NCBI GenBank assembly: GCA_013400975.1
Contig: WBMZ01002655.1
Location: 124,001 to 188,000 of the forward strand
DNA: 64,000 nt
Source of the DNA: Atrichornis clamosus
Taxonomy: Eukaryota; Chordata; Aves; Passeriformes; Menuridae
Direction of reading: 5' to 3'
The position numbers and the translations under genes are program-made. The notes beneath the pieces were generated by a model, which saw nothing but the letters and a program-made list of their open reading frames with translations, was not told the DNA's origin and made no database searches. Below, one piece after another: positions 15,290-28,970 of this stretch. The stretch's first letter is position 1. Each line of letters begins with the position of its first letter.

Positions 15290-15353
15290 GTTGCCCCTCT
15301 CCATTTTCCTCANAAACAGTGTATCATATTGTTGCCCCTCTCCATTTTCCTCA
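15290..15353. repeat. Tandem duplication (23-bp copies, period 41) with an N base
   Basis: The block GTTGCCCCTCTCCATTTTCC plus TCA occurs at 15290-15312 and again at 15331-15353. The single N of the window (15313) falls directly after the first copy, which suggests an uncertain consensus or a real duplication that was hard to resolve. Confidence 0.85.
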
Positions 15354-16287: not shown

Positions 16288-16418
16288 TCAAAGCGTTGCA
16301 AGAATTCTTGAAAATGAGATAATTAATGTCAGTACTGTCTGTCCAACACCAAAGACAAGGGCTTCTAGGGGAGCCATATTCTTTCCTGCTACTCTGTAAA
16401 TTCCAGCTACTGCAGCAC
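16288..16418 (-). CDS. TMEM170B: TMEM170B coding exon 3 (terminal)
   Basis: Exon 3 begins after the acceptor TTCTTAG (AG at 16420-16419) with GTGCTGCAG, completing Ser90 from the split codon A|GT. It encodes AAVAGIYRVAGKNMAPLEAL followed by VFGVGQTVLTLIISFSRILATL and a TGA at 16290-16288. It supplies the end of the second hydrophobic segment and the whole third segment. No in-frame ATG-initiated reading frame of ordinary length exists here, so the exon is easily missed; the splice phase and family match support it. An eight-G run lies just after the stop in the 3' UTR (16267-16274). Confidence 0.95.
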
Positions 16419-19400
16419 CTAAGAATCACAAGAAAAACAATGATCAAACCACAGAAAAAGACAAGGTTGAAATATACGACAAATTATTTACTCTGTCTAT
16501 GCATCAGCTATTTAAAGAACATTACCAAACACTGTATTACTTCATGGCATTACACAATTACCACTTTTGCTTGTATTTTTCTAGTTATGTACATGCTTCA
16601 GGATTTTCCCAACTGAAGATTAACTTTTCCATCATCAGTTTGATTTAAGAAAATTGAATCTCATTGTTTCCCTGTAGACATCTTCAAATATTATTTTTAA
16701 TATTTTTGCCTTGTGCCAGTTTGAAAAGGTGGCAAGAAAATCCTCTAAAAATTTACGAAGTCTAGAGTGTGGTTTAATGCTGTTTATATAGGCAGGGAGA
16801 AAACAACATCAATAATGCTGCTAGTGTCTACAAAATAATTGCAAATATTCATTTATCAGCTTCATGTAACATTTCAATTGAATAATGTGGTCATATTAGA
16901 TGATATTATTTTGACTTAAACGACTCAATTGTTAACAATTGTTTAGCAAATCCAGCAAAACATGCAAAAGATCCAAGTATTGCAGTTTTATCCATGAATG
17001 TGTATGAGAGGAGATTTCTAACCAACACAATTAGATTTTGAGCTATAGCACATTAAAAATCAGACCACTTCTCTTGTACAGTTGTGTGCAAATTCACATT
17101 TGAAGTGGCCAGGATCAACCAGATCAAATGGCCAGGATCAACCAGAAGCAAAATACTGTGCTGGAAACAAAGCCAGGGGCTACTAACTTCCTTCCTCTGT
17201 CTTTCACATGCTGAATTCATCACATGTGTTTGAAGAACAGAAGTCACAGAGCAAAGGTACAGCTTTGGGACAGAGGGACGTCATGGAGCAAATGCCTGAG
17301 AAAGACACGTCTTTGTAGCAGCCAAAAAAAGCCCAAAAAACTATGCTAATGATGAACAATATTTTCTGCTCAAATTTCAGAGTTTTTTAAGGATGGTAAA
17401 ATGGTTACTTAAAAAAAAAAAACATATAGTGGCTTGTATACAGTTGTGTTCGTACATAAAAAATGTACTCAAGTCAAACTTCAGAAGCTCACTTAAAATT
17501 AAGTTTTTATTTAATACTTTCTGAACTAGTATTGTCTATACAGTGCTTGTTTTCCTTCCCTAAAGAACAAACATTCCTGTGTTTTATTTGAGAATGAATA
17601 ACTTTTTCCTGAAAACCAAGCCTCAAACTTAATTGTAGACCTTCAGTATGTATCGTCTGAGATGCTCTCTAGTCATAATTAAATGCATTAAAGATCACAA
17701 AGGCTTTTCTGGGCTCAAGGAAAACTGAAAAGACATCACAGCTTTTTAAAATAATAGGCAAGAGTTAAAAAAATGGGTATACTAACACTAACATGAATAG
17801 TCTGCTGAAGTGATCAAAAATCCATTAGTGACACAGAAATACACTGAGTCCCAACAGATTTTCTGAAGGTACAGTCAGTATCTGAGTCATCTGACATCTT
17901 CAAAAAGTAACACCCGATGTTTACAATATTTTTAGGGAAAGTAGAATTCACTAATGATTGTGACCATAACAGTACTTACAAACACTATTAATCAGACTGT
18001 TAGCTAAATTTTGGTTTAAGTTATTTTTATTGATTGGGTTTTTTAAAAAATATTCTGTAAAGTATATTTTGTCTGAAAACCTCACCAGAAGGCTAGCCTT
18101 ATGGTATTTCACTCAGCTACCTTGCATAAGCTTTTCCATTTGTTCCTTGGCTAGCTGCTGTCAAAAACTGAAAGAGATCCTTCAGACTTAGCCCACTACT
18201 GACATTAAAATTATTTTTGTGATTGAACCCTCAAAGTGAATTCAAATTGGCCAAAAATGTGTACCAGAATTCTGACTATTAGATCAATAATGGAAATTTT
18301 GGGGCTTCTTGAGAGAACACTGAGATATTCTGGAAAATATCCAGAATGAAACAATAAAAATTTGGTTGTTTGCTAATTATGTATTATTACTCGAATAACA
18401 GTGTGCAACACAACCTGTAATGCATAACCCAGCACAGCTGGTATAGAGCCAAAAGTATGTACAATAGGCTGCCAACGAGGGAAATGAGAACATGTCAGCA
18501 AAAAGGAGTGTGCTGGGGAAGACGAAGAAGAACAGACCCTTCTGGATGAAATACAGCTAAAATCCTTACCTTAAGCTGCCTCACATTTATAAATTCTTGT
18601 TTGGCTTGGTGGAGGTTTTTTGGTTGTTGTTGTTTTGTGGGGTTTTTTTTATTTTTTTGGGTTTTGGTTCATTGTTTTGGGGTTTTTTTTACTGTATCTC
18701 TTGCTAGTTAGTAATTTTCTAATACCTTTTTCTGATAACCATTAAGTTCCACAACTTCTCAAAGCTTAGAAACTGAGGAGCTTCCTGCTTTTCTATATGC
18801 TGGTAAAAAGATCCCAGAAGGTCAGAAAGTTTGAAATATCTCCCATTATAATATAATTATAGAATATAATATATTTTATAATATATAATATTATATAATT
18901 ATATATAATAATATATTACACGTGTGATGACATATGATCACATTATATAATAATCTAAAGTGCCTTCATTCACCTACACAAACTATGCAGAAGACTGGAA
19001 ATACAAAGTGGAAATTGAAGTCAGTTTGTCATTTTAACCTCTTAAGCACTGGACCAGGCATATCCAAACAACCAATATTTCAACTCGCGTCTCCCAGTTT
19101 GCAACACAATACCTATTAAAAATCCTCTTTAATATTTGATCACCATAATTTGCCTTCACAAGCTTCCCACGGAATTTCTTCCAGTATTAAACAACCCAGT
19201 TCTGTCCAGAAACAAAAACTACTTCAAGGTAAAAGTACTTGGCTAACCAAGTTGCAATGCTCTGTGCAAAACCCTTGGGAGCAGCATAACAAGTCTACAG
19301 TCAAAGCTTAGAGAAATTCTCAGATGAATATGCACACAAACAGGACTGCTTGTGTGCTAAATGTTTTGACCTGCAAAACTGGATGCCAAAAATACAACTG

Positions 19401-22400
19401 TGTTGCTCCTCTTTTTATGCACAAAGACACAAAGTACTTTCATTGGAGAAACACTGATCCTGAAACTTCCCCACCACAGAAAGCTGTGAAAGTCTCTGCT
19501 TGGGTATTCCAACACCACATTTCCTAACTTCAGTTCTTCAGAAATGCTCATGCATGGTTGACCTTGTAACAGGCCACTGCCACTTTAATCATGAGACAAA
19601 AATCAGCATAATTTATAAGATACTCAACTGGTTCTAACTCATCTTAGGAAAAAAAAGGTGTAGAACTATACTAAACTATACTGTGGTAAATGGTGGAAAT
19701 TATAGGCTGAAAAATATATAGCAATTAAAACAACCTTTTGAAAAAACTCTTTATGAAACTCCTCATGAAATTTGCATTTTTATTTAACCTTGAAAAGCAA
19801 CAGGCAAGAAGGATTTTCAGTAGGAATAAGAAATAATCTGTCAAAAATCATCCATGAATATGTCCAAAGCTGATAGTGATACCACTACTCTGATAATCTG
19901 GGCAGAACACAGGAAAACAGGAATGAAAGGCAGGAAGGCTTGCCTACAGACTATATGATGGCTGCTAGAGTTAAAATTCCTTACCCTCAAAGACCTTTCA
20001 AGTTAGGCCATCTTGTCAGCAACACTGAAGATTTTTGGGCAGAAGCTACTGCTCGGTTAACATGGGCACCATTCAATGCATGGATTTTAATGTTGAGAAC
20101 TCCTTACCAGCATTGTTTCACACAATGAAGCACACGCTTCTTTCCCACAAAAACAATATTCACTATTTTTCCCTCCACAACAGAAAATTCATCGTGCTCC
20201 TACTTGCTTGGGAAAGCTACTGTAGTCTATCTGTAAGTTTGATAAACATAGCTGGATATGACAATAACATGAAAAAATGGTTGCAGCTTATCTGTGGATA
20301 CAATGTCAAGAAATAAAAAAAAGTATCTAGAGTGGTAGGCACTTGTCTAATACCATAAGAAACTGTAACAGAGCCTTGCCAAACAGCATTTTACCTAGAA
20401 CATCAGCAAAGCTTAATTTTTTGGGATTTTTTGGATGGAGGAGGGAAATAGCTCTAGAACTACTTCAAAATCCTTAACAAACAATTAACAATTCACTAAG
20501 AAAAGCACTGCTTGTGTGCTTTTTTAGAAATTAGATGGAAGGAGGAGAGCAAGGAGGAGAGCAAGGAGGAGAGCAAGGAGGAGAGCAAGGAGGAGAGCAA
20601 GGAGGAGAGCAAGGAGGAGAGCAAGGAGGAGAGCAAGGAGGAGAGCAAGGAGGAGAGCAAGGAGGAGAGCAAGGAGGAGAGCAAGGAGGAGAGCAAGGAG
20701 GAGAGCAAGGAGGAGAGCAAGGAGGAGAGCAAGGAGGAGAGCAAGGAGGAGAGCAAGGAGGAGAGCAAGGAGGAGAGCAAGGAGGAGAGCAAGGAGGAGA
20801 GCAAGGAGGAGAGCAAGGAGGAGAGCAAGGAGGAGAGCAAGGAGGAGAGCAAGGAGGAGAGCAAGGAGGAGAGCAAGGAGGAGAGCAAGGAGGAGAGCAA
20901 GGAGGAGAGCAAGGAGGAGAGCAAGGAGGAGAGCAAGGAGGAGAGCAAGGAGGAGAGCAAGGAGGAGAGCAAGGAGGAGAGCAAGGAGGAGAGCAAGGAG
21001 GAGAGCAAGGAGGAGAGCAAGGAGGAGAGCAAGGAGGAGAGCAAGGAGGAGAGCAAGGAGGAGAGCAAGGAGGAGAGCAAGGAGGAGAGCAAGGAGGAGA
21101 GCAAGGAGGAGAGCAAGGAGGAGAGCAAGGAGGAGAGCAAGGAGGAGAGCAAGGAGGAGAGCAAGGAGGAGAGCAAGGAGGAGAGCAAGGAGGAGAGCAA
21201 GGAGGAGAGCAAGGAGGAGAGCAAGGAGGAGAGCAAGGAGGAGAGCAAGGAGGAGAGCAAGGAGGAGAGCAAGGAGGAGAGCAAGGAGGAGAGCAAGGAG
21301 GAGAGCAAGGAGGAGAGCAAGGAGGAGAGCAAGGAGGAGAGCAAGGAGGAGAGCAAGGAGGAGAGCAAGGAGGAGAGCAAGGAGGAGAGCAAGGAGGAGA
21401 GCAAGGAGGAGAGCAAGGAGGAGAGCAAGGAGGAGAGCAAGGAGGAGAGCAAGGAGGAGAGCAAGGAGGAGAGCAAGGAGGAAAGCAAGGAGGAGAGCAA
21501 GGAGGAAAGGAGGAACAACAAAAAAAACCCAAACAAAACAAAAGGCAGACTTACTGGTTATCATTGCTCCAGTTATAGAACCCAGAAATCCAATGCTGAC
21601 CACAATGACAGAGATCAGCCTCCCCTGCCTATGCCTCTGCAGCATCACAAACATTAATACTCCCACAGCACCGTGGACAAAGAGAGAGGAGAAGAGAGCC
21701 CAGAGGAAAACCCAGTACCACATCTCTGAAAGAAAGCAGTCAAATAAAGGGTTAACCTTTTTAGACAAGAACTTTATAAGTAAGAAACTTTAAAACATTG
21801 CATACAATCAACAGTAAGAGAAAAGCAATACTGATTTTCATATTAAAAGTGATACATGTGACACCATCAGCATATCCTCAAGACACTTTCCTCCTTTCAG
21901 CAGTATCATAAAGGACTAGCTGTATTATGATAGAAATTATAAAAAGGATTCTGGCAAAAAACTTAATTCAGATTTATTTTTACAAGTAGTCATAAATCCT
22001 TTAATGGTTTCTCTAAACAGTGTTAATTGCAATTTCTTAGTAGGTATTGTAACTATTGCAGAATGACATACTCTGACACAAAGGCTGAAGGAGGAAAATG
22101 TCAGGAATTGTTTTGGGGTTTGGGGTTTATTTTGGTGGTGAGTTTTTATTTTGGGATGGGTGTGGGGTTTTTTGTTCTTTCCCAGCTCTTCCCCACCCCT
22201 TCACCTCCACCAATATGAAACAGCATCAGGAAACATCAGATGGGAAAACTGAGATTAAAGACTTTAGTTTATCTACCCGGGAGCTGTAACAGAGAGTTCC
22301 ACCAAATTAGCTTCAAAGGCACAAATAAAAACACTACAATTTTAACAAGAAATTTTAACACATCTAACTCCTTGCTTCTAATTGCTTAGCACAGAACTTC

Positions 22401-25400: not shown

Positions 25401-28400
25401 TTTAATTCAGCACCAGGTCCTTTCCTTAATTATTGTATTAACTGGTACTTTCAAAGTTAACAGAACTATACTGTCAAACTCTTACTTGGAGATGCTAACA
25501 TTTTTCCTGCATTAAGTGGAGAAGAAGCACTTTGCTGAGGAGCATTTAAATCTTAAATTACAGACTAGTCCTCTCAAGTAACAGGACAGGCAGCAAAGAC
25601 AATCCAGACAATTAGGGACAAATGAGTACATAATGGAGCTTAGGAGCTTCTGTTAGTAGAAATATTGCCATGTTCTTTATTGTGGCAGTAGCATTTAAAC
25701 AATTTTTACTTTACTGGATACTCAAAGTGGGTTTTTCTTATTTTTCACTTCAAATTCAGCTACTATCTGACGTGTTCTAGTAAACCCTAATCTACCACTA
25801 ACTCTAAAACACAAACAGTTCATATAAAGGAGGTGTTCTTGGGATTTACTGGAGGATGTAACACAGAGTGAGGTAAAAGTCACTTCTCCCATGAATACTG
25901 GAGCCTTACTTCCACCTCCCGAGAGAGGGCAGGAAGATATGAAGCAAGCACATCATGGTGGTGGGCCTGTATGTGCAGCTACGGGGTAAAATGCTTGAAG
26001 CTTTAGCTGTCACATGAAATTGTCTGTGTTCTCTTGAGGCCACATATGAAAGTTTCAGAAAATTAATATGTTTTTAAGAAAGATGCTGATAAAAATTTTC
26101 CACTTGTTTGTGCAAACATAATAGATATGGTTTACTTAAAGATAAATCTTTACTTGTGCAACTTGAAAGCCCAGTCCAGACCACAACTGTGAGCCCAAAA
26201 GTAAAGATAAGGCAGTCTTTAACATTCATGGTACATTATGTATTAACAAATTTCTTTTCCCAGTACTCTGGAGAAGTTTCTCCTTATACAGGGAATGGAT
26301 TAGGCAGTCAAACAAGACAAACTCATTCACACACCTATTTCCTTAGCAGGGAAAACAACAGAACTTCTAGTTTTGAACAAATTTTACTTTGATAAGTAGT
26401 AAGGAAGGGTTTATGTAAATTATCCAGTTTTTTGTTAGTATCAATTATTATATCAATACATATTCTATTTTGTAGAAAAGATTTTAAGTCCAGTGCAAGT
26501 TTTGGACTGTTGACAGTCCATGAAAACATTCAGCTCAACAGGTTATGGCTATAAGAACAACCTGCATTTAAGCACCAATTTAAAAACTACAGTGCAACTA
26601 CAGCTGACAGTGACATATTTTCCAACAACACTGCAATGGATAAAAAATTATTTTCCATAGTTTTTAAATTAAAACAAAAATCCCCATTAAAAATAACTTA
26701 TGCAACCCCTCAGCATATTGTAAAAGCACTGAGAAACACGCCGTTTTGCTTACTTAACTCTCGGCACTGAATTTCATAGAAATGCCTGTGTTGCATAATG
26801 GTCTAATAGGAAAAACTTTATAGAGGATGTCTGGCACAAAGAAAAGTTAAATCCATTGTGAATGTTTTCCTTTAAGAGTACAAGATGCATTTTTACAGTA
26901 GGTATGTAAAAGTAACTAATCAGAAAGTGAGTTGTATTAGGGTGTCACCACATTAATACCTGGAAAATTTAATCATCAGACACACACTACAAACTTCATA
27001 GATCAAATAAGTCAAAAAGCATAATCTTTTTTATGACACTAAAATGTATCCTGAAAGTTAAAAGAACAAGAAAGATAAAAAACCCTAAGATGACCACTTT
27101 CCGTTTGCTACAGCTTCAACTTCAGCTACACATCTATTTTCATCCTACTTTTTTCACCTTTAATAGATTTTTTAAAAAATCTATTAATATTAGAATATTT
27201 TCTTAAATATTTAAAACATATGCCCTGTACTCAACATTTTCCACTTATCTGTCACCACCCAATATACCCCTACAAAAAGCAGAAAGAATTAACTCAGTTG
27301 CACCTCTGATATTGACACCAAATCCCTGCTTATTCAGAGCTGGAAGCTTATGCTTTTCTTTACACATGGACAGAATAAGAAATCAGAAGATACTCCTCTC
27401 CACTTTATGCCTTGGGTCTCACACTAGTCCACACCCATTTTTCAGCCCAAGATTGAGCAGAAAAAAGCCAGTTCTTGCCAAGAGCCAGCCAAAGCCCCAC
27501 TCTTCTAACAGAGGATGAAGACCTGATTCTACTTTGGTTCACAGAATATTTTCATAACAGCTCAGTCTTTAAGAATCCCTGATGTTTAAGGTTACGACTA
27601 TTTTTCAGAAAATATCTGTCACCCTGTTCACTCCCACAGCTCTCATTGTCCACAGGTATGCTAGGGGGTGGGAGGAGAAGTCTCTGATTCTCCACATTCA
27701 TTTTTATGGTTTTTTGCTTAGGTTTTTTATAGCTCTCTGTCAAATGCCAATAAGCATATATCCACAAGGAAAAAAACCCAAACCAACCACCCCCACAAAT
27801 ATACTCCAGCCTTCCATACATATTTATACACTCTCACACACTTTCTACAATCCTTTACTCACGCACAGGTACCCATCACTTCACTCGCATACACACACCC
27901 TGTACCATTAGCCTTCTTTTATGATATATGGGCATACAAAAGTGAGAGAACACACCCCACACGCTCATCTCCTTTTCTCATGCAGGCATCCCAGACACCG
28001 GGCACAGCCACCAGTCCAGCCAACACCAAACACACAAACCCCTCCCCATTCCCCGGACCCCACCGACCCCACGCCCAAGCAGGTGCACACACACGCACAG
28101 TGTACCCCTGCTCACGGAACACGCATGTAGGCACACGTACATGTGGAACATAGGCAACACAAACCCCAGCCCTCCCTACGTGCAGCACACAGGGGAGACC
28201 ACCGCCACCCCCACGCCCTCCATTGTGCTCCAGCCCCGGAGCAGCCACCACACCGGCGGCGCCGCTCGCCCGCCCGCCCCGCGGAGCGCACCCTCGCACC
28301 CGCACAGCCCCCGCACTGCCCCGTTACCGGTGAGGCTGCGGAGGACGGTGCCGTGAGCCCACAGGCTCAGCACTTGCTGCACCGACAGGTTGATCATGGA

Positions 28401-28424
28401 GTTGTCTCCCGCTTCCACCTTCAT
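16288..28424 (-). CDS. TMEM170B: TMEM170B, transmembrane protein 170B (three coding exons, complete)
   Basis: Join on the minus strand of 28424-28328, 21725-21555 and 16418-16288 (399 nt, 132 residues plus TGA). The product is a small multi-pass membrane protein of the TMEM170 family. Recognition rests on the N-terminus MKVEAGDNSMINLSVQQVL, the exon 2 core EMWYWVFLWALFSSLF, and the C-terminus ending ISFSRILATL, which match TMEM170B rather than the paralogue TMEM170A as I know them. Three hydrophobic segments are visible at about residues 34-61, 69-97 and 111-131; a basic RHRQGR loop (63-68) separates the first two. A possible N-glycosylation sequon (N12-L-S) lies in the N-terminal tail. The start ATG has a good Kozak context (A at -3). 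Both introns are GT-AG, with phases 1 and 1. The length of 132 agrees with the human protein as I remember it. Reported roles for the family (ER membrane shaping for TMEM170A, Wnt/beta-catenin restraint for TMEM170B) come from literature and cannot be read from this sequence. Confidence 0.96.
17106..17147. repeat. Short tandem duplication in TMEM170B intron 2
   Basis: TGGCCAGGATCAACCAGA is present at 17106-17123 and again at 17130-17147 (period 24). It is a recent-looking local duplication with no visible function. Confidence 0.9.
18614..18690. repeat. T/G-rich low-complexity tract
   Basis: Runs of T separated by GG/GGGG on the plus strand, which appear as A/C-rich sequence in the TMEM170B sense direction. 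It lies in intron 2. Confidence 0.8.
18846..18956. repeat. TA-rich tract with nested inverted repeats
   Basis: Almost pure A/T sequence from TATAATATA-type steps, followed by a perfect E-box CACGTG at 18919-18924 and more TA-rich sequence. It is capable of cruciform extrusion and lies in intron 2. Confidence 0.8.
20541..21510. repeat. 12-bp minisatellite, 80 near-identical units (GGAGGAGAGCAA on +)
   Basis: Eighty complete units occupy 20541-21500, followed by a 10-base partial unit. I see only one substitution (G to A in the unit at 21477-21488), so the array is almost perfectly homogeneous. In the TMEM170B sense direction the unit is TTGCTCTCCTCC, which has no A. No stop codon, GT or AG can therefore arise in the array. 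All six reading frames are open because the unit is a multiple of three. It begins 44 nt past the exon 2 donor. The homogeneity points to recent expansion or continuing homogenisation, and it is likely length-variable between individuals. Confidence 0.98.
21555..21725 (-). CDS. TMEM170B: TMEM170B coding exon 2
   Basis: The exon is 171 nt and encodes residues 33-89 (EMWYWVFLW...ITGAMIT), which cover the first membrane segment, the RHRQGR loop and the start of the second segment. The acceptor is CTTTCAG|AGATG (AG at 21727-21726). The donor is ACC A|GTAAGT (GT at 21554-21553), a strong match to consensus. A U-rich stretch of about 40 nt follows the donor, and then the 12-bp minisatellite. If intron 2 is not removed, the frame continues through the minisatellite to a stop at 20524. 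Confidence 0.96.
22110..22180. repeat. G/T-rich tract with clustered GGG/GGGG runs
   Basis: The plus strand carries GGGGTTTGGGG, then GGGATGGGTGTGGGG, separated by a T-rich spacer. The G-runs make quadruplex folding possible. It lies in TMEM170B intron 1, about 400 bp from exon 2. Confidence 0.75.
27160..27187. repeat. 28-bp perfect palindrome, no spacer
   Basis: Two 14-bp arms meet at a central TTTAAA; the left arm begins TTAATAGATTTTTT. It is perfect over all 28 bases and fails at the next pair. It lies in intron 1 of TMEM170B, about 1.1 kb from exon 1. Confidence 0.95.
27816..28160. repeat. C/A-rich degenerate (CA)n stretch
   Basis: Irregular CACACA/CACCC sequence on the plus strand leads into the CpG island. 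In TMEM170B sense it is G/T-rich and lies just downstream of the exon 1 donor. Confidence 0.7.
28328..28424 (-). CDS. TMEM170B: TMEM170B coding exon 1
   Basis: This exon encodes residues 1-32 (MKVEAGDN...LRSLT) plus the first base of the Glu33 codon. The donor is ACC G|GTAACG, at 28327-28326. The exon sits inside a CpG island. The same reading frame stays open for 231 codons upstream, to an ATG at 29117, but family conservation points to the ATG at 28424-28422 as the start. Confidence 0.95.
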
Positions 28425-28896: not shown

Positions 28897-28970
28897 AGGA
28901 CCGGGAAAGGGAACGGGAACGGGAGCGGGAACGGAGCAGCGGGAGCGGGAGCGGAGGGAGAGGGAGGGCG
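28897..28970 (+). other. GGGAAC/GGGAGC hexamer run, G-quadruplex-capable
   Basis: At least ten GGG tracts separated by one to ten bases occur on the plus strand (first at 28903-28905, last at 28966-28968), several in a six-base period. The plus strand is the template strand for TMEM170B. The run lies within the CpG island, next to the NRF1-like site. Confidence 0.8.

What the first reader, a model, noticed from the sequence alone, without database searches (positions are those of the whole stretch)
20541..21510. Homogeneous 80-unit minisatellite placed 44 nt behind a conserved splice donor
Seventy-nine of 80 12-bp units are identical, pointing to very recent expansion or active homogenisation. 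In the TMEM170B sense strand each unit is TTGCTCTCCTCC: pyrimidine-rich with no A. The array therefore has no AG, GT, branch-point A or stop codon and can grow without creating cryptic splice sites. The CU-rich units resemble binding sites for PTB- and PCBP-type proteins (established motif preferences), so the array could act as a large multivalent intronic splicing platform whose strength scales with copy number. The function is inference.
Basis: partly seen in the sequence, partly recalled or inferred. Interest (0 to 1): 0.8.

Follow-up and report, generated by a model that had tools for sequence, protein, structure and literature searches.

The report
Ordinary recent minisatellite in bird intron
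A 12-base DNA motif is repeated about 80 times just inside an intron of the bird gene TMEM170B; it looks like an ordinary, recently expanded repeat, and its true length and any effect on splicing are untested.

Summary
The array is real in this sequence. TRF gives 20539-21506, period 12, 80.7 copies; 79 of 80 units are identical. It lies in intron 2 of an intact TMEM170B on the minus strand (132 aa, PF10190), 44-48 nt behind the exon 2 donor. Two pattern searches of the 1.01-Gb assembly found the motif only here.

The PTB/PCBP reading fails the motif tests I could run: the sense array has no UCUU, no CUCUCU, no CCC, and no pyrimidine run above 11 nt. Arrays without AG and GT are not special (24% of intron-2 12-mers would give one), although a wholly A-free, GT-free unit is rarer (28 of 4157). 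The assembly has sized N gaps and single Ns beside duplicated sequence, so the copy number is uncertain. Intronic VNTRs that affect splicing are already known (ABCA7, TERT).

Best explanation: a recently amplified, probably near-neutral minisatellite. One addition: a retained intron 2 would stay open through the array, giving a hypothetical 432-aa protein with an (ALLL)n tail; none of 147 fetched TMEM170B-like proteins has such a tail.

The parts
20539..21506 (.). 12-bp minisatellite, + strand unit GGAGGAGAGCAA (sense strand of TMEM170B: TTGCTCTCCTCC), 80.7 copies
   Evidence: TRF; unit listing; 77 of 77 exact dimers and 78 of 78 trimers (up to 3 mismatches) found in the assembly lie at this locus
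21477..21488 (+). the single variant unit, GGAGGAAAGCAA (unit 79 of 80, near the donor-proximal edge)
21501..21516 (+). degenerate donor-proximal edge GGAGGAAAGGAGGAAC, which shares GGAAAG with unit 79
21511..21554 (-). 44-nt spacer from the exon 2 donor to the array; U-rich in the sense strand
   Evidence: sequence; 60% T over the 48-nt version
21555..21725 (-). TMEM170B exon 2 (171 nt); the intron begins GTAAGT at 21554-21549
28328..28424 (-). TMEM170B exon 1, coding part
16288..16418 (-). TMEM170B exon 3, coding part with TGA stop
16419..21554 (-). TMEM170B intron 2 (about 5.1 kb); the array is 19% of it
20524..21554 (-). open continuation of the exon 2 reading frame into intron 2, reading the array as (ALLL)n, stop TAA at 20526-20524; hypothetical, only if intron 2 is retained
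   Evidence: translation

Best explanation
The array is an ordinary single-locus intronic minisatellite of a bird (probably a songbird), amplified recently from a purine-rich seed by replication slippage or unequal exchange. It is most likely near-neutral for splicing: it sits clear of the donor, contains no splice signals of its own, and the gene around it is intact. The number 80 and part of the homogeneity may come from the assembler. Shown: the array, its presence at one locus only in two pattern searches of the assembly, the gene structure. Inferred: the mechanism of growth, recency, neutrality.
For: One locus: 77 of 77 exact dimers and 78 of 78 trimers with up to 3 mismatches lie here. 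The edge keeps units that look like the seed: GGAAAG in unit 79 and in the degenerate edge. TMEM170B is intact: 132 aa, GT-AG introns, PF10190 at E 1.9e-36. Preferred PTB sites are absent (PMC3856098 passages). Lack of AG and GT, and lack of stops, are frequent among 12-mers of the same intron (24% and 42% of 4157). With 960 sites, one change and recalled rates of 1-4e-9 per site per year, homogenisation would date to 0.3-1.0 My ago (95% upper limits 1.2-4.9 My).
Against: It is by far the highest-scoring array in the 314 kb sampled (1929 against 457), and it lies within 50 nt of a donor. Intronic VNTRs can change splicing (ABCA7, PMC5954066; TERT, PMC11830802). No RNA data were available to show neutrality.
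Confidence: 0.8

Rival explanations
1. Assembly product: a real array of other length and less uniformity was closed by the assembler or gap filler with repeated consensus units, so 80 copies and 79/80 identity are not biological. It can be true together with the best explanation.
For: Two sized N runs (376, 837) and 5 single-N sites in 314,000 bases; all 5 single-N sites have a sequence of 11-26 bases (26, 24, 19, 18, 11) present on both sides, against 2.2% of 2949 random positions with 11 or more and 0.64% with 18 or more (positions inside the array were not left out of the control). In the window the N at 15313 is flanked by a 24-base duplicate. 11269 contigs, about 90 kb on average. [quoted passage not shown]
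Against: No N in the array or its edges. A variant unit near one edge is kept, which argues against a purely filled consensus. The same paper holds that gaps of 1-5 N in an Illumina assembly are probably base-calling errors, not joins. The sequencing method of this genome is not known to me.
Confidence: 0.45
2. Splicing platform: the CU-rich array recruits PTB/PCBP-type or other proteins and tunes exon 2 or intron 2 splicing by copy number.
For: Position 44-48 nt behind the donor; about 3 YCU triplets and one CUCUC per unit; a unit free of A and GT, rare in this intron (28 of 4157); precedents ABCA7 and TERT (abstract). PTB sites downstream of an exon can promote or repress inclusion (PMC3856098 passages).
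Against: UCUU 0, CUCUCU 0, CCC 0, longest pyrimidine run 11 nt. In ABCA7, intron 18 retention and exon 18 alternative splicing did not change with VNTR length; only exon 19 skipping did. Splicing control of TMEM170B was not seen in the titles and abstract starts of the 25 papers listed of 76 that name the gene.
Confidence: 0.08
3. Coding potential: retention of intron 2, or polyadenylation inside it, gives a TMEM170B protein with a hydrophobic (ALLL)n tail of about 340 residues, so that array length sets the tail length.
For: The exon 2 frame continues through the donor and the whole array to TAA at 20526-20524: 432 aa, 343 of them from the intron. Polyadenylation hexamers lie further on in intron 2, at 20091 and 19784 for example.
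Against: 42% of intron-2 12-mers would be stop-free in all three sense frames as a tandem, so openness is expected often. None of 147 fetched proteins (the 120 listed of 372 and 27 more) holds LALLLA or ALLLALLL. No transcript evidence.
Confidence: 0.03
4. G-quadruplex or triplex element in DNA, as proposed for TERT VNTR6-1 (G-quadruplex).
For: The + strand is purine-rich with two GG pairs per unit.
Against: No GGG run; G4Hunter score 0.75, below the usual 1.2-1.5 (recalled); RNA folding with G-quadruplexes allowed gives 0 kcal/mol for 4 units. The G-rich strand is the template strand, so it is not in the pre-mRNA. A C in each unit breaks the homopurine run.
Confidence: 0.03

Closest known systems
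ABCA7 intron 18 VNTR (25-bp unit, human; PMC5954066, abstract and passages read)
   Same: Intronic minisatellite directly behind a splice donor in a region called C-rich; alleles from about 12 to about 427 units.
   Different: In ABCA7 the first GT of the array is the donor itself, and exon 19 skipping rises with length. Here the array begins 44-48 nt away, has no GT, and has no shown effect.
TERT intron 6 VNTR6-1 (38-bp unit, human; PMC11830802, abstract read)
   Same: Intronic VNTR with tens of copies inside a coding gene.
   Different: TERT's array expands a G-quadruplex and its deletion shifts isoform ratios; this unit has no GGG and a G4Hunter score of 0.75.
CeRep25B minisatellite of C. 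elegans (PMC4039745, abstract and section list read)
   Same: Minisatellite in introns, with oligomer motifs discussed as splicing elements.
   Different: CeRep25B is over-represented near alternative splicing regions, hence at many loci; this motif was found at one locus only.
Human minisatellite VNTRs in general (PMC8096271, start of abstract and passages read)
   Same: Unit of 7 bp or more inside a gene; 35,638 VNTR loci are reported in human, and 49% of human genes hold at least one tandem repeat of the reference set.
   Different: Here only one assembly was available, so variability is not shown.

Membership tests
Minisatellite | Head-to-tail array, unit of 7 bp or more, many near-identical copies | tested here: met
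   Period 12, 80.7 copies, 99% matches; 79 of 80 units identical
VNTR (variable minisatellite) | Copy number differs between individuals | not testable with these tools
   Only one assembly; the flank search found one copy, itself
Splice-modulating intronic VNTR (ABCA7/TERT type) | Located in an intron of a coding gene close to a splice site | tested here: met
   TMEM170B intron 2, 44-48 nt behind the exon 2 donor
Splice-modulating intronic VNTR (ABCA7/TERT type) | Array length changes isoform ratios | not testable with these tools
   No RNA data or genotypes available
PTB-binding polypyrimidine element | 15-25-nt pyrimidine tracts, preferably with UCUU or CUCUCU | tested here: not met
   0 UCUU, 0 CUCUCU, longest run 11 nt in the array; preference from PMC3856098 passages
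PCBP/hnRNP K element | C-runs of three or more (recalled preference of KH domains) | tested here: not met
   0 CCC in the array
G-quadruplex VNTR | Repeated G-runs with a high G4 score | tested here: not met
   No GGG, G4Hunter 0.75; cut-off recalled
Dispersed minisatellite family | Same unit at several loci | tested here: not met
   All 78 trimer matches with up to 3 mismatches at one locus; the tool warns that its counts of repeats are lower bounds

The most novel reading that the evidence does not exclude
A young, A-free array behind a conserved donor acts as a copy-number-tuned element of TMEM170B, either by avidity of many weak YCU sites or because occasional retention of intron 2 yields a membrane protein with an (ALLL)n tail whose length follows the copy number.
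Probability: 0.05. Interest if true: 0.55.

Novelty: new member of a known kind. Interest (0 to 1): 0.17.

Why it matters
As it stands it is one more intronic minisatellite, useful as a case of how pure arrays next to exons should be checked with long reads before function is inferred. If copy number did affect splicing, it would be a young, single-locus bird counterpart of the ABCA7 VNTR and could be tested across individuals.

Tried and rejected
Tried: (1) A dispersed repeat family: not found. (2) A second haplotype or duplicate of the donor-side flank that might show another array length: one match only, itself. (3) PTB/PCBP motifs: preferred forms absent. (4) G-quadruplex: weak. (5) RNA structure of the sense array: -5.4 kcal/mol for 10 units, so largely single-stranded. 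(6) Read-through proteins in public sets that would carry the intron start of other birds. I examined the 120 listed of 372 hits and the 27 new ones of 29 hits for longer forms. Most of the bird proteins differ only in their N-termini and join exon 3 normally. One exception, P0121 of Turdus rufiventris, is identical to the window's protein for 90 residues, through exon 2, and then leaves for an unrelated sequence, not the array. Three read on from exon 2 as S-K (P0127, P0138, P0140), of which two are unnamed and one is a fish; none is labelled a bird. None of the 147 holds LALLLA or ALLLALLL. (7) Literature, as listings: TMEM170B: 76 papers, 25 listed; 0; 317, 20 listed; 0; 8, 7 listed; 31, 12 listed; 1; two of TMEM170B, minisatellite, VNTR, intron retention, passerine: 708 papers, 10 listed, TMEM170B in none of the 10. 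I saw no paper on this array in these listings; the parts not listed were not seen.

Full report
TRF finds one array at 20539-21506 with period 12, 80.7 copies, 99% matches and no indels. Cut into units from 20541, 79 of 80 are GGAGGAGAGCAA; the exception is unit 79 at 21477, and a degenerate edge begins at 21501. Variants therefore sit only near the donor-proximal edge. Exact period-12 identity runs from 20539 to 21482.

The gene is TMEM170B on the minus strand. Splice boundaries give exon 1 CDS 28424-28328, exon 2 21725-21555 and exon 3 16418-16288, with an intact 132-aa product. Pfam gives PF10190, E 1.9e-36. The best public hit, P0001, is 99% identical; its names are Mystacornis crossleyi and one cut off after 'Pseudo'. 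P0121, of Turdus rufiventris, is identical for the first 90 residues. Both genera are songbirds (recalled), so the bird is probably one; the genome itself is unnamed. The intron starts GTAAGT at 21554-21549. Three other protein models (P0127 and P0138, unnamed, and P0140, a fish) read on from the same point as S-K, as GTAAG would give, which agrees with a conserved donor; their DNA was not seen. Intron 2 is about 5.1 kb and the array is 19% of it.

How unusual is it? In 314,000 bases (the window and 25 stretches of 10 kb, 20 of them contig starts) the next best tandem array scores 457 against 1929, and 6 rows, this array included, have at least 10 copies with period 7 or more. The array stands out, but the sample is 0.03% of the genome. 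A minisatellite within 50 nt of a donor is not improbable: with about 160,000 introns (recalled), such positions make up roughly 0.8% of a 1-Gb genome, so a few among many arrays are expected there (inference).

The motif is confined to this place as far as searched. All 77 exact dimers and all 78 trimers with up to 3 mismatches found in the assembly of 1,013,637,577 bases lie in the array; the tool warns that counts of repeats are lower bounds. The 600-base donor-side flank has one match, itself, so that search showed no second allele.

Is the copy number reliable? In the sampled sequence there are two sized N runs (376 and 837, near or at contig starts, where the duplicate test says little) and five single Ns. 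All five single Ns have a stretch of 11 to 26 bases present on both sides; 2.2% of 2949 random positions reach 11 bases and 0.64% reach 18. In the window the N at 15313 stands between two copies of a 24-base sequence. I read these as joins of contigs in or beside duplicated sequence, as in short-read assemblies. Against this, a bird study attributes gaps of 1-5 N in an Illumina assembly to probable sequencing or base-calling errors (PMC7757076, passages). [quoted passage not shown] No N lies in the array or its edges. My conclusion is that a real array of this unit exists, but that 80 copies and 79/80 identity need long reads. If they are right, one change in 960 sites gives 0.3-1.0 My since homogenisation with recalled rates of 1-4e-9 per site per year (95% upper limits 1.2-4.9 My).

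The proposed splicing platform was tested on motifs. PTB prefers tracts of 15-25 pyrimidines with UCUU or CUCUCU (PMC3856098, passages). In the array UCUU, CUCUCU and CCC occur 0 times; CUCUC occurs 79 times and YCU 241 times. A G in every unit limits pyrimidine runs to 11 nt. So neither the preferred PTB form nor the recalled C-run form of PCBP is met, though weak multivalent binding is not excluded. The statement that the array can grow without making splice sites is true. Of 4157 overlapping 12-mers in intron 2 outside the array, 24% would give arrays without AG or GT, and 42% arrays without stops in the sense frames; but only 168 (4%) are free of A, and 28 (0.7%) free of both A and GT. The useful property is thus common, while the strict form seen here is not. 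The spacer between donor and array is U-rich (60% T), a TIA1-like setting by recalled knowledge, and would serve the donor with or without the array.

Since the unit is a multiple of three, length changes keep the frame. Given the 42% above, this is easily chance. None of the 147 proteins fetched (120 listed of 372; 27 new ones of 29) holds LALLLA or ALLLALLL.

Known cases set the frame. The human ABCA7 VNTR lies in intron 18 directly at the donor; exon 19 skipping rises with its length, while intron 18 retention and exon 18 alternative splicing did not change with it (PMC5954066, passages). That result speaks against expecting intron retention from such an array, and for an effect on the next exon. 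TERT VNTR6-1 switches splicing, with G-quadruplexes implicated (PMC11830802, abstract); here there is no GGG and the G4Hunter score is 0.75. C. elegans CeRep25B is a minisatellite over-represented near alternative splicing regions (PMC4039745, abstract). So the kind is known; this is a further locus of it with no shown effect. Works like: an intronic minisatellite. Member of the splice-modulating VNTRs: not shown, as the defining length effect could not be tested.

Verdict: confirmed observation, ordinary explanation, low interest. The open questions (true length, variability, effect on RNA) need long reads and RNA.

Noticed in passing
window 15313: A single N stands near two copies of TGTTGCCCCTCTCCATTTTCCTCA, one on each side; probably a contig join with a duplicated end, downstream of the TMEM170B stop codon.
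   Followed up: partly
L015:4674, L024:8959, L025:7229, L026:8326: The other four single Ns of the sample also lie in or beside short tandem or duplicated sequence.
   Followed up: partly
window 28898-28956: GC-rich GGAACG/GGAGCG tandem repeats upstream of TMEM170B exon 1, in the GC-rich part of the window.
   Followed up: no
proteins P0065, P0128, P0131, P0132, P0134-P0137: Predicted TMEM170B isoforms of seven mammals and one amphibian (Ascaphus) leave the usual sequence right after exon 2; in P0128 and P0131 exon 3 seems, by eye, to be read in another frame, as if cassette exons lay in intron 2. P0121 of Turdus rufiventris also leaves after exon 2.
   Followed up: no
protein P0140: A Notothenia TMEM170B gene model runs from exon 2 into a sequence with PF00665 (integrase core domain, name recalled), probably a transposable element in intron 2.
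   Followed up: no
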